A stretch of 48,008 bases of DNA from Clostridiales bacterium (GTDB lineage: Bacteria; Bacillota; Clostridia; Oscillospirales; Oscillospiraceae): contig JAJPXY010000136.1 in NCBI GenBank assembly GCA_021205205.1, forward strand, positions 1 to 48,008, written 5' to 3'. The stretch's first letter is position 1, and every line of letters begins with the position of its first letter. The notes under the pieces were generated by a model. The model was not told where the DNA came from. It worked only from the letters and a program-made list of their open reading frames with translations, and searched no databases. The position numbers were made by a program, and so were the translations under genes. Below, piece after piece: positions 6,120-31,209 of the stretch.

Positions 6120-6120
6120 T

Positions 6121-7588: not shown

Positions 7589-7600
7589 GGAAATGAGCCA

Positions 7601-11330: not shown

Positions 11331-11354
11331 AGCGCAGGGAGGCACTAAGTGCCG

Positions 11355-11392
11355 GAAGTGCCACTTGAGGGCAGAAGTGCCGCTTGACGGCG
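11355..11392 (+). repeat. 19-bp tandem duplication
   Basis: Two head-to-tail 19-base units starting GAAGTGCC and reading CTTGA near the middle, with four differences. Part of the 476-base gene-free stretch 11268-11743. Confidence 0.6.
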
Positions 11393-11486: not shown

Positions 11487-11630
11487 GCCCCCTTGCCTCC
11501 CCTGAGAAGCGCTGGCCGAATGGCCAATTCCTCTTTAGCGCAAATGCAGGGAGCTATGGCCCTTTAGGGCCATGCGAGTCGCAAAGGGGAGGAGGGCCAC
11601 CGCCTTTAGGCGGTGGCGGAGGGGTTTTCC
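11487..11630. repeat. CCCCTCC/GGGGAGG palindromic repeat with nested ~79-bp insert
   Basis: Outer arms TTGCCTCCCCTGA and AAGGGGAGGAGGG with the CCACCGCC-TTTA-GGCGGTGG hairpin and GGAGGGGTTTTCC end. Between the arms (about 11505-11583) lies a module starting AAGCGCTGGCC and ending GGCCATGCGAGTCGCA. The same module, in reverse orientation, is inserted at the same place of the copy at 30.87-31.0 kb. Confidence 0.8.
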
Positions 11631-11640
11631 GTTGGAGCCG

Positions 11641-11667
11641 TTGACGAGCTTGGTTCAAGGGTATAAA
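11641..11667 (+). promoter_or_regulatory. Candidate promoter of leuS
   Basis: TTGACG at 11641-11646 and TATAAA at 11662-11667, spacer 15 bases (short). It would leave a leader of about 70 bases. I see no T-box in 11268-11743. Confidence 0.45.
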
Positions 11668-11743
11668 CGAGGAATTTCCGCATAGGTTCTATTGATTTTC
11701 GCCAAACAACATCCGTTGAGTATTTTCAGAGAAAAGAGTGATC

Positions 11744-14272
11744 ATGTTGAAATACGATTTTGCAGCCATTGAGAAGAAATGGCAGAAGAAGTGGCAGGAC
11801 GCCAAAGCGTTCCAGGCCGTCACCGGCGACACCACCCGGCCCAAGTGGTACGGCCTGGTGGAGTTCCCCTACCCCTCCGGGGCGGGGCTGCACGTGGGCC
11901 ATCCCCGGCCCTACACCGCCATGGACGTGGTGGCCCGGAAAAAGCGCATGGACGGCTACAACGTCCTGTTCCCCATCGGGTACGACGCCTTCGGCCTGCC
12001 CACCGAGAACTACGCCATCAAGAACCATGTGCATCCGGCGGCCGTCACCCAGGAGAACATCAAGAACTTCACCCGCCAGCTCCATATGCTGGGCTACTCC
12101 TTCGACTGGGACCGGCTCATCGACACCACCGACCCCAAATATTACAAGTGGACCCAGTGGATCTTCCTCCAGCTGTTCAAGCACGGCCTGGCCTACAAGA
12201 CCACTATGCCCGTGAACTGGTGTACCTCCTGCAAGTGCGTCCTGGCCAATGAGGAAGTGGTAGAGGGCGTCTGCGAGCGGTGCGGCTCCCCGGTGGTCCG
12301 CAAGGAAAAGAGCCAGTGGATGCTGAAGATCACGGACTACGCCCAGAAGCTCATCGACGGCCTGGACGACGTGGACTATATCGAGCGGGTCAAAATCCAG
12401 CAGAAGAACTGGATCGGCCGCTCCACCGGCGCGGAGGTCAACTTCCAGACCACCGAGGGGGACGTCCTCACCGTCTACACCACCCGCTGCGACACGCTGT
12501 TCGGCGCGACTTACATGGTCATCGCCCCGGAGCACGCCTACGTGACCAAGTGGAAGGACAAGCTGACCAACTACGACGAGGTGGAAGCCTATGTGAAGAA
12601 GGCCGCCTCCAAGTCCGACTTCGAGCGCACCGAGCTTGCCAAGGACAAGACCGGCGTCAAGCTGGAGGGCGTCCGGGCCATCAACCCCGTCAACAACGAG
12701 GAGATCCCCATCTTCATCTCCGACTACGTGCTGGCGACCTACGGCACCGGCGCAATTATGGCCGTGCCCGCCCACGACACCCGTGACTTCGAGTTCGCCA
12801 AGGTCTTTGATCTGCCCATCATCCAGGTGGTCGCCAGCAGCGACGGCGCGCTGGTGGACCTGAGCAAAGAGGCGTTCACCGACGTGGCCACCGGCGTGAT
12901 GGTCAACTCCGGCTTCATCACCGGCATGACGGTGGAGGAGGCCAAGGAGGCCATGATCAAGTACCTGGAGGAGAACCACATCGGCCACGCCCAGGTCAAC
13001 TACAAGCTGCGGGACTGGGTGTTCTCCCGCCAGCGGTACTGGGGCGAACCCATCCCCATCGTCAACTGCCCCAAGTGCGGCTATGTGGCCCTGCCGGAGG
13101 ACCAGCTGCCCCTGCTGCTGCCCGAGGTGGAGAGCTACGAGACCACCGACGACGGCGAATCCCCCCTCTCCGCCATGACCGACTGGGTGAACACCACCTG
13201 CCCCTGCTGCGGCGGCCCCGCCCAGCGGGAGACGGATACCATGCCCCAGTGGGCCGGTTCCAGCTGGTACTTCCTGCGGTATGAGGACCCCAACTGTGAC
13301 ACCGCCATCGCCTCCAAGGAGGCCCTGGAGTACTGGGGTCAGGTGGACTGGTACAACGGCGGCATGGAGCACACCACCCTCCACCTGCTCTACAGCCGGT
13401 TCTGGAACAACTTTCTCCACGACATCGGCGTAGTGCCCTACGCGGAGCCTTACGCCAAGCGCACCAGCCACGGCATGATCCTGGGCAAGAACCCCCATTA
13501 CGTGGGCAACTTCGAGACCCAGGAGGAAAAGGACGCCATGGTGGAGAAGTACGGCAGTCAGGCCCTCCGCCCCTCCGTCAAGATGTCCAAGAGCCTGGGC
13601 AACGTGGTCAACCCCGACGACGTCATCCGGGAGTACGGCGCGGACACCATGCGGCTGTATATCATGTTCATCGGCGACTTCGAAAAGACCGCCACCTGGT
13701 CCGACGAGGCGGTGCGGGGCTGCAAGCGGTTCCTGGACCGGGTCTGGAACCTCCAGGAGAAGTGCGGCGACAGCCTGGAATACTCCCAGGCCAACGTGGC
13801 TGCCATCCACAAGGCCATCAAGAAGGTCAACGAGGACATCGAGGCCATGAAGTTCAACACCGCCATCGCCACCATGATGGCCCTGACCAACGACTTCTAC
13901 GCCAACGGCTGCACCAAGGGCGATTTGAAGGCCCTGCTGCTGCTGCTCTCCCCCATCGCCCCCCATATCTGCGAGGAGATGTGGGAGAACCTGGGCTTTG
14001 CCGACAGCGGCATGATCTGCAAGCAGCCCTGGCCGGAGTATGACGAGTCTAAGACCGTTGCCGCCACGGTGCAGTTGGCGGTGCAGGTGGCAGGCAAAGT
14101 CCGCGCCAACATCGTGGTGCCCACCGACGCCGACGACGAGGCCGTGGTGGCCGCGGCGCTGGCCGACGTCAAGATCCAGCGCCAGGCCGAGGGCAAGCAG
14201 CTGGTGCGGAAGATTGTCGTGCGGGACAAGAAGTCCAAGGCCGTGAAGATCGTCAACCTGATTTTTAAGTAA
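11744..14272 (+). CDS. leuS: Leucyl-tRNA synthetase
   Basis: Class I aminoacyl-tRNA synthetase charging tRNA-Leu. Features in order: [19 protein letters not shown] with the HIGH-type HVGH (about residue 50), zinc-type Cys pairs ([17 protein letters not shown] and CERCGSP), the CP1 editing domain with a [18 protein letters not shown] core, a second CPKCGY/CPCCGG set, and [10 protein letters not shown] (about 612), then the anticodon-binding domain. Length 842 is normal. I prefer ATG 11744 ([13 protein letters not shown]) over GTG 11738 two codons earlier; AGAG lies just upstream in either case. An open frame of 879 codons antisense to it is a codon-bias shadow. Confidence 0.98.
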
Positions 14273-14280
14273 TGCGTACT

Positions 14281-14335
14281 GAACAAAGCCATAAGCATTG
14301 AAAGGCAGGGCCTTTCGTGTCTGTCGGTTTTGTTC
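14281..14335 (+). other. Two-tier inverted repeat after leuS
   Basis: Outer pair GAACAAA (14281-14287) with TTTGTTC (14329-14335) enclosing GAAAGGC (14300-14306) with GCCTTTC (14310-14316). Right after the leuS stop it may act as a transcript end, but there is no clean T-tail. Confidence 0.45.
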
Positions 14336-14337
14336 AA

Positions 14338-14372
14338 GGGAACGTTGCAGTTTTTTGTTCTGCAACGTTCCC
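14338..14372. other. 13-bp perfect inverted repeat at the edge of the AT-rich island
   Basis: GGGAACGTTGCAG (14338-14350), a nine-base T-rich loop, and CTGCAACGTTCCC (14360-14372). Base composition changes sharply to AT-rich right after it. It may be a terminator-like hairpin or the scar of an integration; no second copy is seen at the right end of the island. Confidence 0.55.
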
Positions 14373-14574
14373 TACTACCATATGATTTAGAGTGCGTTGT
14401 GTGTATACATCTAAAGATTATAATTAGATTGAACTCGTTGGTTTTGCTGTACACTTTCTTTTGCCTGACCAACACTTTGCGCTATCTCAGTAGACACTAG
14501 TTAGATTTCTACTAATTAGCCAAAATTCTACCTTATCTCCCTTTATATTTTCATGAAGCCAAAAAAGTTTTCTT

Positions 14575-14602
14575 TGACTTTTTTGGGGTTTTGTGGTATA
14601 AT
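14575..14602 (+). promoter_or_regulatory. Strong sigma-A promoter in the AT-rich island
   Basis: TTGACT at 14575-14580, 16 bases, then extended -10 TGG plus TATAAT at 14597-14602. The leader to the ATG at 14821 is about 210 bases. It contains a perfect 8-bp stem (TTTTGTAT at 14674-14681 with ATACAAAA at 14686-14693, loop CCGT). Confidence 0.75.
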
Positions 14603-14820
14603 ACAGTTACGAGATGGGGTGTTTTAAAATCTTACCTTACAATGTATTCTCATGTGATTTTTGTGTATAGGGGTTTTGTATCCGTATACAAAAATTGCAT
14701 GGGGATTTTTTTATCTCTGGTTTTGTGTTCCTTGGAAATTGAATAGGGAAGAGGGATTTTTGTTGATTGCAGTTAAATGACATAGTACATAATTCGCGAA
14801 TAATGAGAGGAGAACTCTAT

Positions 14821-15427
14821 ATGATTAAAAAAATACTTCTTGAAGCGCCTTTAAATATTTGGAAAATCGTAAAATATGTGTTGATAGGCCTGGTTGCTAT
14901 TGGTGGGATTATTTTTCATGCTTTCAGATCCATAGTAAAGTTTATTTGCATTTGTTGCGAGCATCCACTTGTTATTATTTATCAACCTGCGATTGCAATG
15001 TTTTATTTAGCTATATATGAGGAAAAATTTGATTCAATAATTAGGGCTTTTATTAGTAGAACTATCGAGTTGCCTCAAATCGCAGAGGGCTATTTCTGTT
15101 ACTGGAATCATTGAATTTAGAGATCGAATCAAAGGTAATAGTGATCAATTTGAAACAGCTTTATCAAGACAAAAGGGAGCGTATAGCTATATGACGGCTA
15201 TTATTTCTTTGATCGCAATCTATGCAGCAATCGATGCTAGTAATGCTAACAGTGTCAACACGCTACTATTAGCTGCTGGAATCGTCATTTTTGTTTGCAT
15301 AGTATCAACAAATTTGTATGAAACATTATTTTTTTCTAATGATGTTGTGAAAAAATTTACGATAAGTGGTGTGCTAGCTGTAATAAATACATTAAATAAA
15401 ACCTTACAAAGGCCTTACAATTCATGA
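14821..15427 (+). pseudogene. Frameshifted AT-rich membrane-protein gene of unknown function
   Basis: A reading frame from ATG 14821 (GAGAGGAG eight bases upstream) gives 97 residues starting MIKKILLEAPLNIWKIV and stops at 15114. A second frame, open well upstream of ATG 15191, continues ...AISVTGIIEFRDRIKGNSDQ and runs to 15427. Dropping one base near GAGGG (15085-15089) fuses them into a 201-residue protein with two N-terminal membrane segments, a soluble middle, and two further membrane segments (TAIISLIAIYAAI, LLLAAGIVIFVCIV). No family recognised. Composition is far more AT-rich than the neighbours, indicating recent acquisition. If sequence and frame are right, the two halves would be separate membrane peptides instead. 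Confidence 0.6.
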
Positions 15428-15472
15428 AAGTGCTCGGCCTTCGCCGCACAAATAAAATCCTTTTCTAGCGCG

Positions 15473-15501
15473 TAAAACCCCGTCCGCATCCGCGGACGGG
15501 G
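15473..15501 (-). terminator. Rho-independent terminator of the GIY-YIG gene
   Basis: 10-bp stem CCCCGTCCGC / GCGGACGGGG with a four-base loop, followed on the minus strand by TTTTA. It begins one base past the gene's stop codon. Confidence 0.8.
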
Positions 15502-15759
15502 TCACTTTGTCCCGTCGATCAGTTTTAACTTCTCCCGGCGGGACAGCCTCTTGATTGCCCTTTCCCGGCGGAGGGCGTCCCCCTTGGTGGGATGTTCCTC
15601 CCGGTACACCACCCGCACCGGCAGACGGCTGCGGGTGTACTTGGCGCCACGGCCCCGGTTGTGGACTTCTGCCCGCCGGTCCACGTCGGCGGCGATGCCG
15701 GTGTAGAGGGTGCCGTCGGCGCACCGGACCATATAGACCCACCAGCTGTGGGGTTCCAT
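15502..15759 (-). CDS. GIY-YIG domain protein, UPF0213/YhbQ family
   Basis: An 85-residue single-domain GIY-YIG nuclease-like protein: WWVYMVRCADGTLYTGIAAD holds the two motif strands (VYMV and YTGI), DVDRRAEVHNRG the conserved Arg region, and the EEHPTKGDALRRERAIKRL helix the catalytic-region Glu. Substrate of the YhbQ group is unsettled. The ATG at 15759 is chosen because GGAGG lies eight bases upstream; an upstream in-frame start adds 18 unconserved residues. It is the only minus-strand protein gene in the 1.7-26.4 kb + strand block. Confidence 0.9.
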   Translation of the reverse strand: MEPHSWWVYMVRCADGTLYTGIAADVDRRAEVHNRGRGAKYTRSRLPVRVVYREEHPTKGDALRRERAIKRLSRREKLKLIDGTK

Positions 15760-15839
15760 GGGCGTCGCCTCCTTTTCGCTGCTTTTCCCCCAGAATAACG
15801 CGAAAAGGCCCAAATTGCAAGGGGTTCCCCGCGCAAGAA

Positions 15840-15863
15840 CGCCGCCCAGCCGGGCGGCGCTTT
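15840..15863. terminator. GC-rich hairpin, possible terminator
   Basis: CGCCGCCC, loop AGCC, GGGCGGCG (15840-15859). The + side is followed by CTTTATTATAT, the minus side by TTCTT. Which transcript it ends is unclear. Confidence 0.4.
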
Positions 15864-15876
15864 ATTATATATAAAA

Positions 15877-16035
15877 CGAATCGGAAGATTCGGAGCTTTT
15901 AGTCTGCCCCTCGCGCCGACAGCTGCCAGCGAGTGGAGCAGTGAGGTCAGATCAAGATGTGGCCCATCTATTCAGAAGCTGCGGCGAAAGCGGACCCCGG
16001 AGGGCTTCCGCCGAAGCTCCTTGCTTGACTGTCCC
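15877..16035 (-). ncRNA. Possible rod-shaped structured RNA (strand uncertain, minus preferred)
   Basis: No protein gene is credible here. Four nested pairings form a long rod (+ coordinates): GGAGCTT 15892-15898 with AAGCTCC 16014-16020; GCCCCTC 15906-15912 with GAGGGC 16000-16005; CGCCGACAGCT 15914-15924 with AGCTGCGGCG 15977-15986; AGATG 15955-15959 with CATCT 15965-15969. On the minus strand the rod is followed at once by a hairpin (CGAATC/GATTCG, 15877-15892) and TTTTA, and preceded by a TGG-TAGGAT extended -10. On the + strand a strong terminator lies at 16123-16145. The shape recalls 6S RNA, but I recognise no family-specific sequence. Confidence 0.35.
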
Positions 16036-16121
16036 TATCCTACCACACCGCCCCCGCGAATTGTTGGCGAAACTGCAAAAGAGTTGTGAAAAGAACATGA
16101 ATCGTTTTGCGAATTTTGCAC

Positions 16122-16146
16122 AAGCGGAAGTTTCTTCCGCTTTTTG
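16122..16146 (+). terminator. Rho-independent terminator upstream of ktrB
   Basis: Perfect 8-bp stem AGCGGAAG / CTTCCGCT with loop TTT and a five-T run. It ends a + strand transcript before the ktrB promoter; no + strand gene precedes it closely, so that transcript may be non-coding. Confidence 0.75.
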
Positions 16147-16189
16147 TCATTTATAGCGGTGAGAGCAGCCTTTTCCCGGCGCAAAGGGC

Positions 16190-16218
16190 TTGCAATCTCC
16201 CGGAAGGTTTGCTATGAT
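16190..16218 (+). promoter_or_regulatory. sigma-A promoter of ktrB
   Basis: TTGCAA at 16190-16195, 17 bases, TATGAT at 16213-16218, with an extended -10 TGC. The leader to the GTG start is about 135 bases, GC-rich and rich in potential pairing (GGCGGACGGGG with CCCCGCCG), so regulation by RNA structure is possible; I cannot match it to a known riboswitch. Confidence 0.65.
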
Positions 16219-16360
16219 AAGAAAAAGGGAGTGTTTTCCCACAAAACAGGGCAAAGGGTCGCCCGGAGCCGAAGCGACCGGCGATACGGCGGACGGGGCG
16301 GGCTGCCGCCGTCCGATTCCCCGCCGTTTTCCCGGCCCACGGCAGGAGGTCCCCGCAACC

Positions 16361-17692
16361 GTGAAACAGCAGCGCAGAAAAGTCCATTTTTCCGCCAACC
16401 CGGGGCGGGTGCTGGCGTTCAGCTTTTTCGCCATCATCCTGGTGGGAACGGCGCTGCTGACGCTGCCCGTCTCCAGCCGGGATGGAACCTGGACCAGCCC
16501 CCTGACCGCCCTGTTCACCGCCACCAGCGCCACCTGCGTCACCGGCCTCGCCACGGTGGACACCGGCCTGTGGTGGAGCGGCTTCGGCCAGGCGGTGATT
16601 TTGGTGATGATCCAGCTGGGCGGGCTGGGCTTTATGACGGTGTTTTGCACCTGCGCCATCCTGCTGCGCCGCCGCCTGTCCATCTCCCGGCAGATGGTGC
16701 TGATGGGGGCGCTGAACGTCAACACCGCCGACGACGCGGTGGACATCGCCAAACACGCGGTGCTGCTGACCCTCGCCTTCGAGGGCGCGGGGGCGGCGGT
16801 GCTGGAGGCGCGGTTCGTGCCGCAGTACGGCTGGGCCAAAGGCATCTGGTACGGCGTGTTCCACGCGGTGTCCGCCTTCTGCAACGCCGGGTTCGACCTG
16901 GTGGGCGGAATGGCGAACTATGTTCACGACCCGGTGGTGAACCTGACGCTAATCACTTTAATCATCTGCTCTGGCCTGGGCTTTTTCGTCTGGGAGGAAC
17001 TGCTGTGGCACCGGGAGAGGGCGCTTTCCCTGCCCAGCCGCCTGGTGCTGCTGACCACGGCGGCGCTGGTGGTCTCCGGCACGGTGTTCTTCCTGCTGCT
17101 GGAGTGGGACGGTGCGTTCCGTGGCTTTTCCGGCCCGGAAAAACTGCTGGCCGCACTGTTCCAGTCGGTGACGCTGCGGACGGCGGGCTTTTCTACCGTG
17201 GACCAGGGGACGCTGACTGAGAGCAGCCAGGCTCTGAGCATCTTCTATATGCTCATCGGCGGCGGCTCCGGCTCCACCGCCGGAGGCATCAAGGTGGGCA
17301 CCGCGGCGGTGCTGGCCCTGGCTCTGCGCTCCGGCCTCCACGGCCGGGAGCGGGTGACGGTGCGGGGCCGCACCATCCCCCACAGGCAGGTGTTCAACGC
17401 CATGACGCTGACGCTGCTGGTGGTCATGGCCTTCTTCGCCGGGGCGGTGTTTCTCTCCGTCCGGGAGGGGCTGCCCTTCCTGGCCGCCGCTTTCGAGACG
17501 GCCTCCGCCATCGCCACGGTGGGCCTTTCCACCGGCATCACGGCGTCCCTCTCCGCCCAGTCCCAGGCGGTACTCATCTGCCTGATGTACCTGGGAAGGG
17601 TGGGTATTCTGTCCTTCTCCTTCGCAGTGCTGACCCACAGGCCGGTAGAGGAAAAAATCAGCTATCCCTATGTGGATATGATGATCGGATAA
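16361..17692 (+). CDS. ktrB: Potassium uptake channel KtrB (TrkH/KtrB family)
   Basis: Membrane subunit of Ktr-type K+ (often Na+-assisted) uptake. The 443-residue protein has four M1-P-M2 repeats with the selectivity-filter glycines at TCVTGLATVDT (about 58), FCNAGFDLV (173), RTAGFSTVD (272) and ATVGLSTGIT (385). It contains the GGGSGSTAGGIK loop typical of the third repeat. The GTG start at 16361 is chosen because AGGAGG lies 11 bases upstream and MKQQRRKVHFSANPGRVL is the usual KtrB N-terminus; 57 upstream in-frame codons resemble no KtrB. ktrA follows after a 172-base gap. Confidence 0.95.
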   Translation: MKQQRRKVHFSANPGRVLAFSFFAIILVGTALLTLPVSSRDGTWTSPLTALFTATSATCVTGLATVDTGLWWSGFGQAVILVMIQLGGLGFMTVFCTCAILLRRRLSISRQMVLMGALNVNTADDAVDIAKHAVLLTLAFEGAGAAVLEARFVPQYGWAKGIWYGVFHAVSAFCNAGFDLVGGMANYVHDPVVNLTLITLIICSGLGFFVWEELLWHRERALSLPSRLVLLTTAALVVSGTVFFLLLEWDGAFRGFSGPEKLLAALFQSVTLRTAGFSTVDQGTLTESSQALSIFYMLIGGGSGSTAGGIKVGTAAVLALALRSGLHGRERVTVRGRTIPHRQVFNAMTLTLLVVMAFFAGAVFLSVREGLPFLAAAFETASAIATVGLSTGITASLSAQSQAVLICLMYLGRVGILSFSFAVLTHRPVEEKISYPYVDMMIG

Positions 17693-17693
17693 C

Positions 17694-17843
17694 GTCAATG
17701 TGCAATGTGCAATGAGCAATTTGCAATTATGGGGGAAAACGAATGTGGTCGCTTTCCTGCTGGACCCATTGTTTTTTGGCTGCGTTCCGATTCTGGAACG
17801 GCAGCGAAAAGTCCGACCATTGCACATTGCTAATTGCTAATTC
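17694..17843. repeat. Opposed heptad repeats between ktrB and ktrA
   Basis: Left block (17694-17729): GCAATGT, GCAATGA, GCAATTT, GCAATTA. Right block (17818-17843): ACATTGC, TAATTGC, TAATTCC, the inverse orientation. Between them lies a small GTTCCGATTCTGGAAC hairpin. The element forms almost all of the ktrB-ktrA gap. Confidence 0.7.
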
Positions 17844-17864
17844 CCTGTTGGAGGGTACATGATC

Positions 17865-18539
17865 ATGAAAACCTACGCAGTTGTGGGCCTGGGGCGCTTT
17901 GGCGACGCCGTGGCCCGGGAGCTGATGCGCCCCGTCAGGGGCCGCCGCCCCTCCAACGAGGTGCTGGCCATCGACATCAACGAGGAACACATCCAGACCA
18001 TCGCCGACCACGTGACCCGGGCGGTGCAGGCAGACCTGCGGGACCCGGAGGTGGTGCAGGCGCTGAACGTGGCGTCCTGCGATGTGGTGCTGGTGTGCAT
18101 CGGCTCCGACATCAGCACCAGCGTGCTGGTGACGCTGAACCTGAAAGAGGCCGGGGCCAAATGCGTCATCGCCAAGGCCAGCAGCGAGGCGCACCGCCGT
18201 ATTCTGGAGCGCATCGGCGCGGACCGGGTCATCTTCCCCGAACACGACGTGGGACGGCGGCTGGCCCACACCCTGAGCCAGCATAGCGCCTACGACCTGC
18301 TGGACCTGTCCGACGACTACGCGGTGGTGCGGGTCCCCATCCCCCGGAGTTGGTGGGGCAAGACCCTGGCGGAGCTGAACGTCCGGGCCAAATACGACAT
18401 CAACGTGCTGGCCGTGCAGGCCAGCGGCAGCAGCCAGCTCCAGGTTTCGCCCGCGCCCCAGACGCCCCTGCCGGAGCAGGGCGGCGTCATGTCCGTTCTG
18501 ACCAGCCAGGAGGCCCTGGCGCGGCTCCAGCAGCTGTGA
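17865..18539 (+). CDS. ktrA: Ktr potassium uptake regulatory subunit KtrA (RCK)
   Basis: Cytosolic gating ring subunit of the KtrAB transporter. N-terminal RCK_N Rossmann domain with VVGLGRFGDAVA (nucleotide-binding GxGxxG), an acidic strand end at VLAIDIN, DLRDPEVVQ and DVVLVCIGSD, then a C-terminal RCK_C domain (about 140-224; in this family it can bind c-di-AMP). 224 residues, normal length. ATG 17865 has GGAGGG nine bases upstream; an ATG two codons earlier is too close to it. The TrmH-like pseudogene begins 12 bases after the stop. Confidence 0.95.
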   Translation: MKTYAVVGLGRFGDAVARELMRPVRGRRPSNEVLAIDINEEHIQTIADHVTRAVQADLRDPEVVQALNVASCDVVLVCIGSDISTSVLVTLNLKEAGAKCVIAKASSEAHRRILERIGADRVIFPEHDVGRRLAHTLSQHSAYDLLDLSDDYAVVRVPIPRSWWGKTLAELNVRAKYDINVLAVQASGSSQLQVSPAPQTPLPEQGGVMSVLTSQEALARLQQL

Positions 18540-18551
18540 CGGGAGGGCGCG

Positions 18552-19312
18552 ATGGAACGAATCACCAGCCGCACCAATCCCCTGCTGGGCCACATCAAAA
18601 AACTGCTGAAGGACCGGAGTTGCCGCCGGGAGTCGGGGGAGTTCGTCTGTGACGGCGTGAAGCTGTTGGAGGAGGCCCTCCGGTGGGGCGCGGAAATTAC
18701 CACGCTGGTCTGCTCTGAGGGACTGGAACTGCCTGCCCTGCCCAAAACCGGGCGGCTGGTGCAGGTCCCCGCCGGGGTGATGGCCTCGCTCTCCCCCATG
18801 AAGGCCCCCAGGGGGTGCTGTTCACCTGCAAGCTGCCCGATTTGACCCCGCCGCAGCGGCTGGAGAGCCGGACCTATTTGGTGCTGGACGGCCTCCAGGA
18901 CCCCGGCAACGTGGGGACCATCTGGCGCAGCGCCGACGCCTTTGGCGCGGCGGGGCTGCTGCTCACCGGACACAGCGCCGACCCCTACAGCTGGAAGGCC
19001 GTCCGAGCCAGTATGGGCGCGGCGTTCCGCCTGCCCGTGTGGGAGGTCACGCCGGAGGAACTGAAAACCCTGTGCCGCTCCAGCGGCCTGCCCCTGTGGG
19101 GCACCGCCCTCCGTGCAGACGCCGCCGACCTGCGGCAACTGGACAGCGGCCCCTGAGCGCTGGCCGTCGGCAGCGAGGGCAGCGGCCTCTCCCGGGAGGT
19201 GCTGGCCCTGTGCGACGGGACGGTCATCATCCCCATGGAGCCCCAGTGCGAGTCGCTGAACGCGGCCATGGCCGCCACGGTGGCGCTGTGGGAGCGATAC
19301 CGCTCCAATTAG
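18552..19312 (+). pseudogene. SPOUT (TrmH-family) RNA 2'-O-methyltransferase, frameshift plus internal stop
   Basis: Three pieces in sequence order make one TrmH-type rRNA methylase. The first frame starts MERITSRTNPLLGHIKKLL with the N-terminal substrate-binding domain. At 18808-18814 it must shift by one base (the C5 run of GGCCCCCAGG) to continue GVLFTCKLPDL, then motif 1 LDGLQDPGNVGTIWRSADAFG. A TGA at 19154-19156 interrupts [15 protein letters not shown], followed by [23 protein letters not shown], which holds the SPOUT knot motifs 2 and 3. The intact protein would be 253 residues. A frameshift together with a nonsense codon favours a true pseudogene over a single sequencing error. Confidence 0.85.
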
Positions 19313-19380
19313 CAATGTGCAATGCGCAATTTGCAATTCGGAAAGACCCAACCATCGCACATTGCTCATTATACATTTTG
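19310..19380. repeat. Heptad repeats with both orientations
   Basis: GCAATGT, GCAATGC, GCAATTT, GCAATTC run directly after the pseudogene stop; the inverse block (CACATTGC, TCATTATAC) follows at 19357-19375. Lies between the pseudogene and dprA. Confidence 0.65.
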
Positions 19381-19427
19381 CTGCTTCATTTGATTCTGAG
19401 CTACCAACGCGATAAGGGGGGCGCTAT

Positions 19428-20672: not shown

Positions 20673-20717
20673 CCGCCCTCGTCTTTCGCACTTCAATTCG
20701 TTGGAGGAATCTTCTTT

Positions 20718-23051: not shown

Positions 23052-23140
23052 CCGAGGCCCAGCGGGCGGCGCTGGAGCGGGGGCGGCTCATCCGCCGGGC
23101 CAACCGGGAGGCCGCCAAGCAGCAAAAATCGGAGGAATAA

Positions 23141-24442: not shown

Positions 24443-24523
24443 CAAAAATTAGGTGGCATTTTACCCGGAAAGCCCTCTGCCGTTGGGCAAATAGGCACAC
24501 GGTTTAGCTTTTGGCTGCCGTAT

Positions 24524-24594
24524 GTGTAGGGGCGGCCCGTGGCCGCCCTGGGTAAGCAGAGGGGTTCCGGGCGGCCGAGGGCCGCTCCTACAGG
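24524..24594. repeat. GTAGGGGCGGCC palindromic repeat, copy 3
   Basis: GTGTAGGGGCGGCCCGTGG, then GCCGCCCTGGGTAAGCAG as in copies 1 and 5, then GGGCGGCCGAGGGCCGCTC. It occupies the centre of the 243-base gap between trmFO and plsX, which has no gene. Confidence 0.8.
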
Positions 24595-24685
24595 AGAATG
24601 GTGAAATTTTCCGGGTAAAGCTGTTATACCCGATTCAGCGGGACAGCCAAACGAGAAACAGAACAGAAAAAAAGAGGCCTTTTTC

Positions 24686-25735
24686 ATGAACATCATCATC
24701 GACGCGATGGGCGGCGACCTTGCCCCCGCGGAGCCGGTCCGGGGCGGACTGAAAGCCCACGAGGAACTGGGCTGCGACATCACCTTTGTGGGCCGGGAGG
24801 CCGACATCCGCCAGGTGCTGGAGCAGGACGGCGTCAAGGAGCTGCCCCAGGGCGTCACCATCGTCAACGCCACCGAGGTGGTGGAGATCTGCGACGACCC
24901 CTCCACCGCCTGGCGCAAAAAGAAGGATTCCTCCCTGTCGGTGGGACTCAGGCTGCTCCGGGACGACGGGGCGGACGCCTTTATCTCCGCCGGTTCCACC
25001 GGCGCCCTTTTGAGCGCGGGAACGCTGCTGGTCAAGCGCATCCCCGGCATCAAGCGGGCGGCGGTGGCCCCAGTGGTCCCCACCAGCAAGGACAACGCGG
25101 TCCTCATCGACGCAGGGGCAAACGCCGAGTGTACCCCGGAATATATGCTGCAATTCGCCTACATGGGCAGCTTTTACGCCGAAAAGGTGCTGGGCAAGCC
25201 CAATCCCAAAGTGGGTCTGCTGAACATCGGCACCGAACCCAGCAAGGGCAGCGAGCTGTATAAAGAAGTCCACGACCTGCTGCAAAAGGCCGGGGACGCC
25301 GGGCGCATCAACTTCGTGGGCAACGTGGAGCCAACCAATCTGGCCAGCCCCGACGCCTGCGACGTGCTGGTGGCCGACGGCTTCGTGGGGAACATCATGC
25401 TCAAGGCCATGGAGGGCACCGCCAACTTCATCGTGGACGCGCTGAAGGACCTGTTCAAAACCAACTGGAAAACCAAGACCAGCTACCTGTTCCTGCGGGG
25501 CAGCATGGGCGGCTTCCGGGAGCGGCTGGACAGCCGCTCCACCGGTGGTACCGCCATGCTGGGTATCCAAAAGCCCGTCTTTAAGGCCCACGGCAACAGC
25601 GACGCCTACGCCTTTTTGAACGCCGTGCGGCAGGCCAAGCTCTTTGTGGAGGCCGACGTGAACCGCGCCATTGTGGAAAACATCGACCACATGGTCCTGG
25701 ACACCCCCAAACAGGCCACCGGAACGGAGAAATAA
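24686..25735 (+). CDS. plsX: Phosphate acyltransferase PlsX
   Basis: Converts acyl-ACP to acyl-phosphate, the first step of the PlsX/PlsY route to phosphatidic acid. 349 residues. Starts MNIIIDAMGGDLAPAEPVRG with the family DAMGGD motif; SAGSTGALLSAGTLLVKRI, NIGTEPSKGSELYKE and DGFVGNIMLKAMEG are conserved. AGAGG lies seven bases before the ATG. rnc follows after 28 bases; acpP, commonly found between plsX and rnc in Firmicutes, is not here. Confidence 0.97.
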   Translation: MNIIIDAMGGDLAPAEPVRGGLKAHEELGCDITFVGREADIRQVLEQDGVKELPQGVTIVNATEVVEICDDPSTAWRKKKDSSLSVGLRLLRDDGADAFISAGSTGALLSAGTLLVKRIPGIKRAAVAPVVPTSKDNAVLIDAGANAECTPEYMLQFAYMGSFYAEKVLGKPNPKVGLLNIGTEPSKGSELYKEVHDLLQKAGDAGRINFVGNVEPTNLASPDACDVLVADGFVGNIMLKAMEGTANFIVDALKDLFKTNWKTKTSYLFLRGSMGGFRERLDSRSTGGTAMLGIQKPVFKAHGNSDAYAFLNAVRQAKLFVEADVNRAIVENIDHMVLDTPKQATGTEK

Positions 25736-25763
25736 CCATTTGAACAGAAAGAAGGGCGAAAGC

Positions 25764-26441
25764 ATGAAGACACTGGAAGAAAAGCTGGGCTATCACTTTC
25801 GGGACCCCTCCCTGCTGGAGAACGCCCTGACCCACAGCTCCTACGCCAACGAGCACCACATGGGCAGCATCCACTCCAACGAGCGGCTGGAGTTTTTGGG
25901 CGACTCGGTGCTGGGCATGGTGACGGCGGACAGCCTGTACCACACCTTCCCCAACCTGCCGGAGGGGGAGCTGACCCGTCTGCGGGCCAACCTGGTCTGC
26001 GAGGGGAGCCTGGCCATGGTGGCCCGACAGCTGGACCTGGGCAGCTACCTCAAGCTGGGCAAGGGCGAAGCCTGCGGCGGCGGCGGCCAGCGGCCTTCCA
26101 TCATCGCGGACGCGGTGGAGGCGGTGCTGGCGGCGGTCTATCTGGACGGCGGCATCAGTCAGGCCCGGCGCATCGTGCAGCGGTTTATCCTCAGCAACAT
26201 CGACCAGGTGCAGGAGGCCAGCCGGGACCACAAAACCTACCTCCAGGAGCTGGTACAGCGGAAAAGCGGCCAGAGCCTCAGCTATCGGCTCATCGGGGAA
26301 TCCGGCCCAGACCACGACAAGACCTTCACCATGGAGGTACTGCTGAACGGAACCAGCGTCGGCTCCGGCAGTGGCAGGAGCAAAAAAGAAGCCGAGCAGA
26401 TGGCCGCAAAGGCGGCCATCGCCCGGTTGGAAGGAAAGTAA
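25764..26441 (+). CDS. rnc: Ribonuclease III
   Basis: Double-strand-specific endoribonuclease for rRNA and mRNA processing. 225 residues: RNase III domain with NERLEFLGDSVLG (catalytic Glu/Asp near residue 40), IIADAVEAVLAAVYLDGG (second catalytic pair), then a double-stranded RNA-binding domain (KTYLQELVQRKSGQ ... SKKEAEQMAAKAAI). ATG 25764 has GAAGGGCGAA upstream; earlier in-frame codons are noise. Last + strand protein gene before transcription converges. Confidence 0.97.
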   Translation: MKTLEEKLGYHFRDPSLLENALTHSSYANEHHMGSIHSNERLEFLGDSVLGMVTADSLYHTFPNLPEGELTRLRANLVCEGSLAMVARQLDLGSYLKLGKGEACGGGGQRPSIIADAVEAVLAAVYLDGGISQARRIVQRFILSNIDQVQEASRDHKTYLQELVQRKSGQSLSYRLIGESGPDHDKTFTMEVLLNGTSVGSGSGRSKKEAEQMAAKAAIARLEGK

Positions 26442-26477
26442 TTCAATTTGCAATTTGCAGTGTGCAATTAGCAATGA
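26441..26477. repeat. Heptad repeat after rnc
   Basis: Units GCAATTT, GCAGTGT, GCAATTA, GCAATGA in 7-base phase, starting at the rnc stop codon. Confidence 0.65.
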
Positions 26478-26527
26478 TGCGTGGTTCACGCCTATCCCTT
26501 TGAACCAGCTTTGTCAATTTTTCTGGC

Positions 26528-26590
26528 AGGAAACCCCTCCACCATGCTTCGCATGGTCCCCCTCCCCTTTCAGGGGAGGCGAGGGGAGGA
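26528..26590. repeat. CCCCTCC/GGGGAGG palindromic repeat, uninterrupted copy
   Basis: GGAAACCCCTCC, hairpin ACCATGC-TTC-GCATGGT, then CCCCCTCCCCTTTCAGGGG AGGC. The 40 bases to its left (ATCCCTTTGAACCAGC...) also match the left flank of the copy at 30.87 kb, so this is the same element without the ~77-bp insert. Confidence 0.75.
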
Positions 26591-26753
26591 GAGTGCTTAT
26601 TCGTATGTCTTGCGTTTTAAGAAGCATAGCACAAATTTTCTGCAAAAATAGCTAGTTTGTTTCTATTTTCTTTCCTTTTTAGCGATTCGCAAGAAAAATG
26701 TTTGGTTAATATTGTAAACCTTTCCCAGAAAAAATTATCGTTCCGGAACTGAC
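26591..26753. other. AT-rich convergent intergenic segment
   Basis: Gene-free AT-rich DNA at the point where + strand genes (left) and minus-strand genes (right) meet. I see no clear terminator hairpin with a T-run, no gene and no convincing dif site. Confidence 0.5.
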
Positions 26754-26818
26754 CGCCCCTCTCGCCTCCCCTGAAAGGGGAGGTGGCACGGCGTAAGCCG
26801 TGACGGAGGGGTTTCTCC
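26754..26818. repeat. CCCCTCC/GGGGAGG palindromic repeat, inverse orientation
   Basis: CTCGCCTCCCCTGAAAGGGG AGGTGG, hairpin CACGGC-GTAA-GCCGTG, then ACGGAGGGGTTTCTCC. Faces the copy at 26528-26590 across the AT-rich segment. Confidence 0.75.
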
Positions 26819-26835
26819 TCAAAGCTGGCTAACAG

Positions 26836-27883
26836 CTAAAGGCGAAGCCGATCCGCCACCGCCGGGCGGAAGGCATCGAAGGCGCTGGGCACGGCGTACA
26901 CCGCCGCCAGCTCCTCCGCCCCGGCCCAGACCCAGCCGTCGGGCAACTCCGGGCTGCCCATCTCCGCCAGCAGCGAGTCCATATGCCACTCCCGGTGGGT
27001 GAAGATGTGCTTGCCCGTGGGACCGGGGGCCACAGAGACGGCCCCGGTCAGGTACTCCGGCGTCACGTCGGAAAGCTCATTGGGGAACTCCCACAGCCGG
27101 GCCAGCAGCCCCCCGCTGGGGGCGGCGGCGCAGCGCCACCTTATCCTCCCAAAAGAGCAGGTACACCCGGCGGCTCTCCACTTTTCGGGGCCGCTTGGCG
27201 GCCTTGACGGGCAGCTCGGCGGTGCGGCCCTGCTGGCAGGCAACGCACCACGCCGCCACCGGGCAGTGTTCACAGTCCGGCGCGCCGTTGGGCAGGCAGA
27301 CCAGCGCCCCCAGTTCCATCAGCGCCTGGTTGTAGGCCCCCGGCAGGTTCCGGGGCATGGTGTCCAGCAGCAGCTGACGGATACGCTGCTTGGTCTCCGG
27401 GCGGGTGATGTCCCCCTCGTCCCCGGTGAGCCGGGCGACCACCCGGAGGACGTTGCCGTCCACGGCAGGCACCGCCTGGCCGAAGGCGATGGAGGCAATG
27501 GCCCCGGCGGTGTACTCCCCCACGCCGGGGAGGGTCAGGATGTCCTCGTAAGAACTGGGGAACTGTCCCCCGTGGACCTCCATGATCTCCCGGGCGGCCT
27601 TTTGCAGGTTCCTGGCCCGGTTGTAGTACCCCAGCCCCTGCCACAGCTTGAGCAGCGTGTCCTCGTCCACACGGGCCAAGTCGGCCACCGTGGGCAGCGC
27701 CTCCATGAACCGGGCGTAATAGCCCAGCACCGCCGCCACCCGGGTCTGCTGGAGCATGATCTCCGACACCCAGACGTGGTACGGGGTGGGGTCGCTGCGC
27801 CAGGGCAGGGTGCGGCAGTGGTCGTGGTACCAGTTCACCAGAGGGAAGGACGCGGCGGCGCAGCGTGCAGCGGAATCGGACAT
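26836..27883 (-). pseudogene. mutY: A/G-specific adenine glycosylase MutY, frameshifted
   Basis: MutY removes adenine mispaired with 8-oxoguanine. From ATG 27883 (GGAGG eight bases upstream) the frame encodes the HhH-GPD glycosylase: WYHDHCRTLPWR, EIMLQQTRV, LPGVGEYTAGAIASIAFG, catalytic Asp in VDGNVLRV, and the FeS cluster cysteines CLPNGAPDCEHCPVAAWC. It leaves frame at the C6 run (+ strand about 27111-27116). The other frame, ending at 26836, carries the rest: LLARLWEFPNEL and the C-terminal Nudix-like 8-oxoG recognition domain (GKHIFTHREWHMDS). Removing one base gives 348 residues, normal for MutY. As read, the protein would stop at 27077 without its C-terminal domain. Sequencing error and real mutation are both possible. 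Confidence 0.88.
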
Positions 27884-28074
27884 GGAGGTTTCCTCCTTTT
27901 CGTGGGGCAAACGGCGGCTTGACGGGGCCGCCCGGTTTGTGGTAAACTAAACAGGCGTGAGAGTAGTTCCTGGCACAATGTGCTGTGCTTATGGCGTACG
28001 TTGCTTTACTTTACAAACGGGTGGTTACGCTTCCAGCTTTCCTGTTAGATGTTCGCTTTAGACTGGTAGTACCC

Positions 28075-28109
28075 AACTAACGGCTAACGGCTAACAGCTA
28101 ACAGCTTAC
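28075..28109. repeat. Heptad repeat upstream of tRNA-Leu
   Basis: GCTAACG, GCTAACA, GCTAACA, GCTTACA in 7-base phase, ending six bases before the tRNA. It belongs to the same family as the GCAATGT heptads. Confidence 0.7.
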
Positions 28110-28114
28110 ACAAT

Positions 28115-28199
28115 GCGGGTATGATGGAATTGGCAGACATGCAAGATTTAGGTTCTTGTGCCTTACGGCGTGCAGGTTCGACCCCTGTTACCCGCACCA
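28115..28199 (+). tRNA. tRNA-Leu, anticodon TAG
   Basis: Acceptor stem GCGGGTA pairs with TACCCGC, then A and an encoded CCA. The anticodon stem CAAGA/TCTTG encloses TTTAGGT, anticodon TAG (reads CTN). A long variable arm (TGCC-TTAC-GGCG) marks class II tRNA-Leu, and the T-arm loop is TTCGACC. 85 bases including CCA. It is the only + strand gene in the minus-strand half and is followed by its own terminator. Confidence 0.95.
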
Positions 28200-28210
28200 C
28201 ATCGGAGCAA

Positions 28211-28248
28211 GCGCACATCGGCTGAAAACTGGCCGATGTGCGCTTTTT
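28211..28248 (+). terminator. Rho-independent terminator of tRNA-Leu
   Basis: 12-bp perfect stem GCGCACATCGGC / GCCGATGTGCGC, nine-base loop, then TTTTT. It lies between the tRNA and the convergent obgE stop and may stop transcription from both sides. Confidence 0.9.
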
Positions 28249-28253
28249 GCGTT

Positions 28254-29534
<1,281 letters not shown>

Positions 29535-29575
29535 ACGGCCCTCCTTATGACTGTGGAACCCATGTGAAACAGGTT

Positions 29576-29646
29576 TGCAGGGGCGGCCCGTGGCCGCCCG
29601 AAAAATCAACCGCCTGTTTCGGGCGGCCACGGGCCGCCCCTACAGG
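29576..29646. repeat. GTAGGGGCGGCC palindromic repeat, copy 4
   Basis: Near-perfect inverted repeat: GGGGCGGCCCGTGGCCGCCC and its complement GGGCGGCCACGGGCCGCCCC, with a 20-base spacer. It lies in the obgE leader, so its RNA would form a very stable hairpin about 30 bases ahead of the obgE ribosome site. Confidence 0.85.
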
Positions 29647-29670
29647 ATGGATGTTCCTGCCTGATGCCAG

Positions 29671-29704
29671 AAAAAACGCACCGAACGAAGTATGTCCGGT
29701 GCGT
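29671..29704 (-). terminator. Terminator of the rplU-prp-rpmA operon
   Basis: Minus strand: ACGCACCG, 13-base loop, CGGTGCGT, then a run of six T. It begins 13 bases after the rpmA stop. Confidence 0.85.
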
Positions 29705-29717
29705 TAAAGGCGAGTGA

Positions 29718-30002
29718 TTACTGCTCGATGGCTTCGACGATGGAGACCTGCTTGCGGTCTTTGCCGAGGCGCTCGAACTTGACGGTGCCGTCCTTCAGGG
29801 CGAACAGGGTGTCGTCCTTGCCCTTGCCCACGTTGGTGCCGGGGTGGATCTTGGTGCCGCGCTGACGGACCAGGATGTTGCCGGCCAGGACGAACTGCCC
29901 ATCACCGCGCTTGACGCCCAGACGCTTGGCCTCGGAATCCCGGCCGTTGCGGGTGGAGCCAACGCCCTTTTTGTGGGCGAAGAACTGGATGGAAATCTTC
30001 AT
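29718..30002 (-). CDS. rpmA: Ribosomal protein L27 with cleavable N-terminal extension
   Basis: 94 residues. The N-terminus [13 protein letters not shown] carries the short extension found in Firmicutes, cut by Prp after the FF pair so that mature L27 starts AHKKG and reaches the peptidyl transferase centre. Then [20 protein letters not shown] and the conserved [21 protein letters not shown]. prp is directly upstream, seven bases away. Confidence 0.98.
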
Positions 30003-30008
30003 AGGTCG

Positions 30009-30338
30009 TTACACCTCCATAACTTCAATATAATCGGGATAGTCCTCGTGGAGGGCGGTGAGATAGACCATCATCCCCACCAGCATGGTCTGGCAGGTGT
30101 TCTCGTCCATCTCGGAAAGCCCCCCCGGCAGACGGAGGGATAGGTGGCCGGAGTCCGGCTCCAGCTTGACGGCGGCGGCCAGGCCCAGCACCTCGTTAAA
30201 GGTACACTCGACCATGCCCGCCACGGCGGAGACGGCGGCACAGACAATGTCGCTGCCCTCCTCGCCATAGCCGCTGTGACCGCTGATGTCGAAGCTGACG
30301 ATGCGGTCCCCCTCCATATGAAAGGCTGCGGTGGTCAT
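30009..30338 (-). CDS. prp: Ribosomal-processing cysteine protease Prp
   Basis: Cleaves the N-terminal extension of L27. 109 residues, DUF464/YsxB family. Catalytic His21 in DISGHSGYGEEGSD and Cys33 in IVCAAVSA match the known H-C dyad spacing. It lies between rplU and rpmA as in other Firmicutes, and the L27 here has the matching cleavage site. Confidence 0.95.
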   Translation of the reverse strand: MTTAAFHMEGDRIVSFDISGHSGYGEEGSDIVCAAVSAVAGMVECTFNEVLGLAAAVKLEPDSGHLSLRLPGGLSEMDENTCQTMLVGMMVYLTALHEDYPDYIEVMEV

Positions 30339-30346
30339 TGCAACCC

Positions 30347-30661
30347 TCAGGCCACGGTGATCTTGCCGATGGTCACCTTGGTGTAGGGCTGACGATGGCC
30401 CTGACGCTTGCGGTAGCCCTTCTTGGGCTTATACTTGAAGATACGGATCTTCTTGCCCTTGCCGTTTTTGACGACACTGGCCTCCACGCTGGCGCCCTCC
30501 ACCACGGGAGTGCCGAAGATGGTGTTGTCGCCGTCGATCACGGCCAGGACCTGGTCGAAGGTCACGGTATCGCCGGCCTCCACGGGCAGCTTCTCGATGA
30601 AGAGGGTGTCGCCCTCCGCCACCTTGTACTGCTTGCCGCCGGTCACGATAATTGCTGTCAT
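30347..30661 (-). CDS. rplU: Ribosomal protein L21
   Basis: 104 residues: [18 protein letters not shown] at the start and [27 protein letters not shown] near the end, typical of L21. First gene of rplU-prp-rpmA. The leader is about 95 bases (see promoter). Confidence 0.98.
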
Positions 30662-30755
30662 GCGGTTGCACCTCTTTCCTTAATAACGGGCTCGCTCTTG
30701 CAGGTGTTGAGGCCCTTGGGGCAGACCTCACCCTTGTTGCCTACTCGATGCGGCT
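30662..30755 (-). promoter_or_regulatory. rplU leader, possible L21 leader RNA
   Basis: Untranslated leader of about 95 bases between the rplU promoter and ATG. It has paired segments (GAGGTCTGCC with GGGCCTC on the minus strand) and GAAAGAGGTG just ahead of the start. Firmicutes often carry an autoregulatory L21 leader here; I judge by position, not by a sequence match. Confidence 0.4.
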
Positions 30756-30760
30756 TGAAT

Positions 30761-30789
30761 AGTTTATCAGTTTTTGCCGGGCTTGTCAA
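30761..30789 (-). promoter_or_regulatory. sigma-A promoter of rplU-prp-rpmA
   Basis: Minus strand: perfect TTGACA (30789-30784), 17 bases, TGA-TAAACT (30766-30761) with extended -10. Confidence 0.85.
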
Positions 30790-30864
30790 CGGTTTTCGCG
30801 GAATTTTCCCTGTAAAAAATATTCTGGTTATCCCTTTGAATCAGCCTTGTCGGTATTGCCGACA

Positions 30865-31002
30865 CGAAACCCCTCCACCATGCTTCGCATGGTCCCCCTC
30901 CCCTTTTGCGACTCGCATGGCCTAAAGGCCATAGCTCTCTGCATTTGCGCAAAAGAGGAATTGGCCATTTGGCCAGCGCTTCACAGGGGCGGCAAGGGGC
31001 GA
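30865..31002. repeat. CCCCTCC/GGGGAGG palindromic repeat with nested ~77-bp insert
   Basis: CGAAACCCCTCC, hairpin ACCATGC-TTC-GCATGGT, CCCCCTCCCCTTT; then an insert at about 30907-30983 (TGCGACTCGCATGGCC ... GGCCAGCGCTTCA) before CAGGGGCGGCAAGGGGC. The insert is the reverse complement of the one at 11505-11583 and is absent from the otherwise matching copy at 26528-26590. It contains palindromes ATGGCCTAAAGGCCAT and GGCCATTTGGCC. Confidence 0.8.
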
Positions 31003-31209
31003 GTGCTTGTCGTGTAATGCTGGTTTTGTTCGGCAGATACAGGATTTTCGGCAGAGAAGCCCTGCTCTAGCCACTAAAAATGTGGTTAGTCCAAGCGGAT
31101 AGTCTGCAAAATATTTTCTTGGCGGCGCAGCCCTTCCAGCACTATACTTTTAATTCGTAGCACCTGGCTAACAGCTAACAGCTAGTAGCTAATAGCTCGT
31201 CAAATATTC
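31003..31209. repeat. Gene-free stretch with heptad repeat at 31163-31198
   Basis: 31003-31160 shows no gene or clear signal. 31163-31198 holds heptads GCTAACA, GCTAACA, GCTAGTA, GCTAATA, adjoining the prfC stop. Confidence 0.6.

What the first reader, a model, noticed from the sequence alone, without database searches (positions are those of the whole stretch)
11487..31002. Nested mobile-like insert inside an intergenic palindrome family
The CCCCTCC/GGGGAGG element occurs at 11.27, 11.49, 26.53, 26.75 and 30.87 kb. The 30.87 copy equals the 26.53 copy (including about 40 bases of left flank) except for a clean ~77-bp insert. The same insert, reversed, interrupts the 11.49 copy at the same point. 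Its ends, TGCGACTCGCATGGCC and GGCCAGCGCTTCA, are imperfect inverted repeats, and it is itself palindromic. This is the signature of a tiny non-autonomous element that targets another repeat.
Basis: seen in the sequence. Interest (0 to 1): 0.7.

Follow-up and report, generated by a model that had tools for sequence, protein, structure and literature searches.

The report
Tiny hairpin elements nested in repeats
A 77-base folded DNA element in an uncultured bacterium of the class Clostridia has inserted cleanly into other repeats, and related genomes carry it and a still smaller partner element inside genes, often without breaking the reading frame, which makes it a good new case for asking how the smallest mobile DNAs move.

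Summary
A 77-78 bp insert ("I") interrupts two of the five named copies of the CCCCTCC hairpin repeat in the window (30907-30983 +, 11506-11583 -) at one point, CCCCTTT^CAGGGG, in the same orientation relative to the repeat. It is mobile: I matches in 17 of 32 genomes of the genus. It sits in three unrelated repeat families and at three sites of one protein gene that is uninterrupted in relatives. At six loci, including the window's 30.87-kb one, the host copy is filled in some species and empty in another; at one, exactly 77 bp are added between 1.9 kb and 264 bp of matching flanks. I has two hairpins with compensatory changes, and no terminal inverted repeats or target duplication were seen. 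I is itself interrupted by a 33/39-nt element ("J"), and J by J (also in the window, 11321-11392). J lies in frame in fructose-bisphosphatase of five genomes. IS200/RAYT-type transposase was not detected in 15 of 17 I-bearing genomes. Best reading: non-autonomous structured mini-elements, comparable with Rickettsia palindromic elements and REPs, mostly landing in hairpin loops and perhaps moving as folded single strands. Machinery unknown. New variant of a known kind.

The parts
30907..30983 (+). insert I (77 nt), two-hairpin mini-element, inside host arm
   Evidence: the same-locus host copy in G018 (L447) is empty
30826..31201 (+). whole host-A-type insertion at this locus, I included
   Evidence: absent in G005 (L446), where the flanking 9 bp AAATATTCT (window 30817-30825 and 31202-31210) is single: BLAST pieces overlap by 9 bases
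30868..31002 (+). host A hairpin arm, split at 30906/30984 by I
   Evidence: right limit by eye
11506..11583 (-). insert I (78 nt) in the right arm of a host A copy
11487..11627 (-). right arm of host A copy, interrupted by I
   Evidence: limits by eye
11276..11320 (+). left arm of the same host A copy, with hairpin GTCACGGCTTCGCCGTGAC
   Evidence: limits by eye
11321..11392 (-). J element (33 nt outer) interrupted by a second J (39 nt, 11335-11373), in the host A left arm
   Evidence: 72 nt = 33+39
26531..26590 (+). empty host A left arm; empty site CCCCTTT^CAGGGG at 26570/26571
   Evidence: limits by eye
26755..26815 (-). empty host A right arm; empty site at 26773/26774
   Evidence: limits by eye

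Best explanation
I is a non-autonomous mobile mini-element of about 77 nt made of two consecutive hairpins. It inserts cleanly (shown: no target duplication and no terminal inverted repeats at the junctions compared) into other palindromic repeats, mostly in or beside their unpaired loops, and more rarely into genes. It belongs to a guild of such elements: I (77 nt) and J (33 or 39 nt). J nests in I and in J, and lengths and open frames often leave a coding host readable. Inferred, not shown: it moves as a folded single strand (ssDNA or RNA), inserted by an activity supplied in trans that is not an IS200/RAYT-type Y1 transposase detectable in most carrier genomes. Host A itself looks like a MITE, with a 9-bp duplication at the one locus where this could be read.
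For: Dispersed family: matches in 17 of 32 genomes of the genus, up to 31 matches per genome, interrupted copies counting twice. Unrelated repeat hosts: A CCCCTTT^CAGGGG; B GCGTC^AGAAAAA (empty copies); C CCGCC^AAAGAAAA in another genus, sharing no more than 9-mers with A or B. Filled/empty same-locus host copies: L139 (G003) vs G005, exactly 77 bp added at subject 1896|1897, left flank 1.9 kb at 91%, right 264 bp at 84%; L060/L016, L213/L422, L199+L243+L166/L440; L106/L276; window 30.87 vs G018. Three I+J composites with net lengths 111, 111 and 112 nt at three unrelated sites of a GH3 gene, uninterrupted in the five other genomes aligned, one of them in part only. Compensatory change at pair 48-72: UA 23, GC 16, AU 9, GU 1, UG 1, unpaired 4 of 54; 41 doubly changed cells against a shuffled mean of 12.4, 0 of 500 as high. 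The long-range alternative fold gains none. Folds: host A and both J points in I are unpaired or mostly so. J: 16-nt core in 21 of 32 genomes, 60 matches in G000, reversed control 0 in all 32; same-locus I copy with and without J (L173/L105); standard lengths in 140 of 149 measured copies; in frame in FBPase of 5 of 11 aligned genomes at 3 sites.
Against: No enzyme was identified. Fixed point and orientation in host A could reflect founder insertions spreading with the host or by recombination: the host hairpin variant differs at L106/L276, L213/L422 and window/G018. In G057, another genus, I sits in a host-B-like repeat at a different point, GGCGT^AAAAG, in the opposite orientation relative to the host; in the host B folds that stretch is mostly in a stem, which speaks against a strict loop rule. 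One of eight host-B folds puts the usual point in a stem as well (L244, DNA set). Insertion points in genes were not tested for loops, and no random-position control was run. Two of five covariation measures do not exceed shuffles (pairs with a double change 2 vs 1.2, 112/500; further pair types 8 vs 8.4, 479/500); the covariation rests on two pairs, and RNAalifold's covariation term is small (-0.48). One of three GH3 composites breaks the frame, and the GH3 and LysR genes of that contig may be decaying.
Confidence: 0.57

Rival explanations
1. I entered each host family once or a few times, and later spread inside those repeats by amplification of the composite and by gene conversion between host copies, not by its own repeated movement.
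For: One point and one orientation in host A. Hairpin variants differ together with I at some same-locus sites (L106/L276; window/G018).
Against: Three sites in one gene without host flanks. At L139/G005 and L060/L016 the host hairpin is alike on both sides of the clean insertion. Conversion cannot explain entry into several host families, or two points and orientations in host-B-like repeats.
Confidence: 0.2
2. I is a MITE mobilised by a DDE transposase.
For: Small, non-autonomous, high copy; the host repeats look like MITEs, and A shows a 9-bp duplication at one locus.
Against: No terminal inverted repeats and no clear target duplication at the GH3, A or B junctions. None of 118 paired ends lies more than 200 bp apart (many fetched loci reach only about 600 bp to either side).
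Confidence: 0.08
3. I is a REPIN or IS200/IS605-type element moved by a Y1 (RAYT/TnpA) transposase.
For: Hairpins near both ends, no duplication, orientation-specific in host A.
Against: Y1 domain PF01797 detected in 7 of 32 genomes, in 2 of the 17 I-bearing ones and in 0 of the 7 with 10 or more I matches (three carriers are under 80% complete). No constant 4-5 nt 5' flank.
Confidence: 0.1
4. Not an insertion: one long ancestral element that lost the module in many copies.
For: Both forms are common in the genus.
Against: The same module sits in unrelated hosts and in a gene. The ends lack direct repeats that would drive precise deletion.
Confidence: 0.02

Closest known systems
Rickettsia palindromic elements (RPE); coding palindromes of Wolbachia and Methanocaldococcus (titles seen in a reference list only)
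   Same: Small palindromic non-autonomous repeats, intergenic and inserted in frame in conserved genes (passages of PMC2229807; section 13 of PMC10969869)
   Different: RPEs are given as 105-146 bp with 12-bp TIRs. Here the elements are 77 and 33/39 nt, without terminal inverted repeats, nested in each other, in Clostridiales/Oscillospiraceae MAGs.
REP / REPIN elements with RAYT transposases
   Same: Hairpin mini-elements; some REP families are reported inserted within palindromes (PMC3733652 section 7)
   Different: I does not bear a GTAG/CGTC tag at its ends (CGTC next to I in host B belongs to the host: it is in empty copies); Y1 transposase not detected in 15 of 17 carriers.
Small dispersed repeats (SDR) of Nostoc (recalled from memory; a look-up failed)
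   Same: Very small, structured, nested, found inside other repeats (recalled)
   Different: Recalled as 21-27 nt in cyanobacteria; no sequence comparison was made.
MITEs (host A and host B)
   Same: Host A copies in the window have inverted arms; 9-bp duplication at one locus
   Different: This is the target, not the insert.

Membership tests
Rickettsia palindromic elements | palindromic, small, high copy | tested here: met
Rickettsia palindromic elements | in-frame insertion in conserved genes | tested here: met
   J: FBPase in 5 of 11 aligned genomes, stretch of about 190-260 residues open in each; whole frame checked in one, G010. I+J: 2 of 3 GH3 insertions in frame
Rickettsia palindromic elements | terminal inverted repeats of about 12 bp (table in PMC2229807) | tested here: not met
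   ends TGCGACTC / GCGCTTCA are not complementary; the hairpins are internal
Rickettsia palindromic elements | sequence homology to an RPE family | not tested
   no RPE sequence was compared
REP/REPIN | GTAG or CGTC unpaired tag at one end of the element | tested here: not met
   ends read in 54 aligned copies; CGTC beside I in host B is host sequence
REP/REPIN | RAYT/Y1 transposase in the genome | tested here: not met
   PF01797 in 2 of 17 I-bearing genomes
MITE (DDE) | terminal inverted repeats | tested here: not met
MITE (DDE) | target site duplication | tested here: not met
   clean junction at L139/G005, GH3, host B against empty B; a 2-bp ambiguity in host B cannot be excluded
IS200/IS605 derivative | insertion 3' of a fixed 4-5 nt target | tested here: not met
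   left flanks vary: CCCTT, CCTTT, GCGTC, CCGCC, ACCCC, CCTAC, GCCAC and others
Nostoc SDR | nested very small structured mobile repeats with compensatory changes | tested here: met
   nesting; covariation; the definition itself is recalled, not read

The most novel reading that the evidence does not exclude
A guild of frame-tolerant hairpin mini-elements (33, 39 and 77 nt) in Oscillospiraceae that moves as folded single strands and uses the loops of other hairpins, including its own kind, as preferred landing sites, with an as yet undescribed enzyme or an RNA route; J's two standard lengths, both multiples of three, let it colonise core genes.
Probability: 0.3. Interest if true: 0.85.

Novelty: new variant of a known kind. 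Interest (0 to 1): 0.62.

Why it matters
As far as I know (recalled), how palindromic mini-elements such as those of Rickettsia move is still open. Here the same elements are seen filled and empty at the same loci in several related species, in repeats and in a core metabolic gene, with nesting and clean junctions. That gives a system in which target choice, strand, length and frame can be tested, and a set of genomes with and without the elements in which the missing enzyme can be sought by co-distribution.

Tried and rejected
Rejected: drift of one long element (same module in unrelated hosts); DDE MITE (no terminal repeats, no duplication); IS200/RAYT; reverse transcriptase route by presence alone (RVT_1 in 16 of 32 genomes, 8 of 17 I-bearing ones, none in G003, G015, G016, G019); phage or plasmid carriage (0 exact pattern matches in viral contigs; no match in plasmids or phages); known RNA family (only a tRNA in the window at gathering threshold). 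An autonomous long form was sought by pairing 5' and 3' ends: none of 118 paired ends lies more than 200 bp apart; 11 further 5' ends had no recognisable 3' end, 4 of them at contig ends. The pattern does not catch the three G057 copies, which were looked at. Gain was not polarised against loss by a species tree; the lack of direct repeats at the ends is the only argument for gain. The GH130 gene with a J (L211) was not compared with an empty ortholog. Of 73 distinct I sequences, 54 were aligned; 19 (8 with J inside, 11 others) were left out. The class 'B' (34 of 97) lumps host C copies of another genus with B. Of the 12 genomes matched for FBPase, 11 were aligned; G031 (66% identity) was left out. 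Of the 19 J copies with an uninterrupted counterpart (net 39 nt 12, 33 nt 6, 27 nt 1) many counterparts are other copies of the same repeat, not the same locus.

Literature searches showed nothing on such elements in Oscillospiraceae or Clostridiales in the rows listed (for example 25 of 4,458 papers and 10 of 152); most subscription papers are not held.

On the second reading searches were added. They made the L139 site firmer, showed host C to be a separate repeat, and brought the G057 counter-example, for which the odds of the best reading and of the novel case were lowered (0.60 to 0.57 and 0.35 to 0.30).
Full report
What was checked. The five copies of the CCCCTCC/GGGGAGG hairpin were read directly. 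11.27+11.49 and 26.53+26.75 are inverted arms of two larger MITE-like copies; 30.87 is an arm of a third. The arms at 11.49 and 30.87 are interrupted at the same point, CCCCTTT^CAGGGG, by the same 77-78 bp module (I). Relative to the host the orientation is the same; both host and insert are flipped at 11.49. In the window's own genome (G000, 2.16 Mb, 164 contigs) a query of host plus insert gave 41 matches. The insert alone gave nine, five of them strong: four in this host and one (L005) in a different repeat.

I is a family. It matches in 17 of 32 genomes of the genus (up to 31 matches per genome, interrupted copies counting twice) and in two other genera among 300 genomes drawn from the family (7 of 300 genomes, 3 of 106 genera). 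No match in viral contigs, plasmids or phages. Among 97 context-distinct full copies, 61 sit in host A; 34 sit in host B or in a third host, C, by a flank rule that does not part them; 2 fitted neither rule, one cut by a contig end. Empty host B copies read GCGTC^AGAAAAAGG, filled ones GCGTC-[I]-AGAAAAAGG, so junctions are clean there too. Host C (CCGCC^AAAGAAAA, genome G085) is a repeat of its own: flanks of three copies match each other at 73-94% and share no more than 9-mers with A or B. Over 129 context-distinct 5' ends, none has the left flank expected of I reversed in host A. An exception to the fixed-point rule is in another genus: two G057 copies whose flanks resemble host B (71-84% where they match) carry I at a different point, GGCGT^AAAAG in the one aligned in full, and in the opposite orientation relative to that host. 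This adds independent insertions, and in the host B folds that stretch is mostly in a stem.

Empty and filled loci. Ninety filled sites with both flanks were compared with all fetched loci, and five had an empty host copy at the same locus. L139 (G003) vs G005 (L421, extended as L472): 1.9 kb of left flank at 91%, right flank 264 bp at 84%, exactly 77 bp inserted between adjacent bases. L060 (G005, filled) vs L016 (G000, empty). L213 (G014) vs L422 (G005). L128/L106 (G016) vs L276 (G005). A sixth is the window's own 30.87 locus: in G018 (L447) a host copy with the same inner part and flanks is present without I. In G005 the whole host is missing, and the 9-bp AAATATTCT that flanks the host in the window is single there. 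In some pairs the hairpin variant left of I also differs, so recombination between host copies is probably at work as well.

I inside a gene. On contig L146 (G014) an open frame with a GH3 domain (PF00933) carries five insertions that the orthologous genes of five aligned genomes lack (one of the five is aligned only in part): three I copies, each already containing J (net 111, 111 and 112 nt), and two J-type elements of 39 nt. Four keep the frame; the third composite, 29 nt from the contig end, does not. No host A, B or C flank is seen at these sites, so I (with J as a unit) can enter other DNA. A LysR-type gene on the same contig is also split by J-like sequence. Its frame is further disturbed downstream, so decay of this region is possible.

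Structure. In an alignment of 54 distinct copies two local hairpins hold: 96.8% of cells paired. Pair 48-72 switches between UA 23, GC 16, AU 9, GU 1 and UG 1, with 4 unpaired. 41 cells changed on both sides against a shuffled mean of 12.4, 0 of 500 shuffles as high; slid controls give 0 or 1 such cells. Against this, the number of doubly changed pairs (2; 112 of 500 shuffles as high) and of further pair types (8; 479 of 500) do not stand out, the signal rests on two pairs, related copies weaken shuffle tests, and RNAalifold's covariation term is only -0.48 and its 5' hairpin is closed differently. The long-range palindrome gains no covariation. I read this as constraint on a folded single strand, RNA or DNA.

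J and nesting. A 16-nt J core occurs in 21 of 32 genomes (60 matches in G000, 160 in G014), the reversed control in none. J interrupts I at two fixed points, GCTCC^CTGC and the apical loop GGCCATT^CGGCC; a 20-nt module uses the first point in other copies. L173 (G014) and L105 (G019) are same-locus I copies with and without J. J interrupts J, also in the window at 11321-11392 (39 nt inside 33 nt). Of 156 distinct J starts, 149 had a recognisable end: 63 and 77 have the two standard lengths (33 and 39 nt as net insertions), 9 are nested. In fructose-1,6-bisphosphatase (G010: 668 residues, PF06874 over the whole profile) J is in frame at three sites in G005 (two nested, 78 nt), G010, G011, G018 (two sites) and G019, five of the 11 genomes aligned out of 12 matched; the aligned stretch is open in all 11. 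Site c in G010, G011 and G018 may be one event.

Loops. In single-strand folds the point in host A is unpaired with both energy sets. J's two points in I are unpaired or mostly so (one flanking base 0.48 in the RNA set). In host B the usual point has at least one flanking base unpaired (0.84 or more) in seven of eight folds of four copies; L244 in the DNA set puts it in a stem. No random-position control was run, and the G057 point is a counter-example.

Machinery. PF01797 (IS200/RAYT) is detected in 7 of 32 genomes, in 2 of the 17 with I and in 0 of the 7 with ten or more I matches. RVT_1 is in 16 of 32 and in 8 of 17. No long form of I was seen. The enzyme is unknown.

What is known. RPEs of Rickettsia are the closest in behaviour: palindromic, in frame in conserved genes (section 13 and passages of PMC10969869; passages of PMC2229807). 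REPs are the closest in size, and some are reported inside palindromes (PMC3733652 abstract, passages and section 7; REPIN passages of PMC3116915). Nested tiny repeats in Nostoc are recalled, not read. I and J miss the 12-bp terminal repeats listed for RPEs and the tag and transposase of REPs, so membership is not claimed.

Verdict. It is wider than proposed: a set of hairpin mini-elements that use each other, other repeats and genes as hosts.

Noticed in passing
L028 1501-1640; L029, L030: A different hairpin insert of about 105 bp sits near the same point of host A (CCCCTCCC^...AGGGGGAGG).
   Followed up: no
L005 vs L059, L077 (host B): A further module of about 40 nt (CAGGAGCGCC...GAGGGTA) is present in G000 and absent in G016 and G019 at a same-locus host B copy.
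   Followed up: partly
L305, L307 (genome G057): In another genus I lies in host-B-like repeats at a different point and in the opposite orientation; its first bases differ (TGCGATGGGC).
   Followed up: partly
window 6121, 10739, 24524, 29575, 46671: Another palindromic repeat family (GTGTAGGGGCGGCCCGTGGCCGCCC...), five copies in the window.
   Followed up: no
window 6053-6120, 7544-7590, 17696-17728, 19306-19352, 26444-26476: Short runs of CAATTAGCAATGTGCAATT-type units.
   Followed up: no
L009, L015, L016, L018, L020, L025: Contigs end within about 12 bp of a host A arm: the repeat breaks the assembly, so copy numbers are lower bounds.
   Followed up: partly
L146 5433-5897 +: LysR-type regulator with its helix-turn-helix split by J-like sequence.
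   Followed up: partly
L211 3472-4695 -: GH130-type gene (PF04041) with a J in frame near residue 164.
   Followed up: partly
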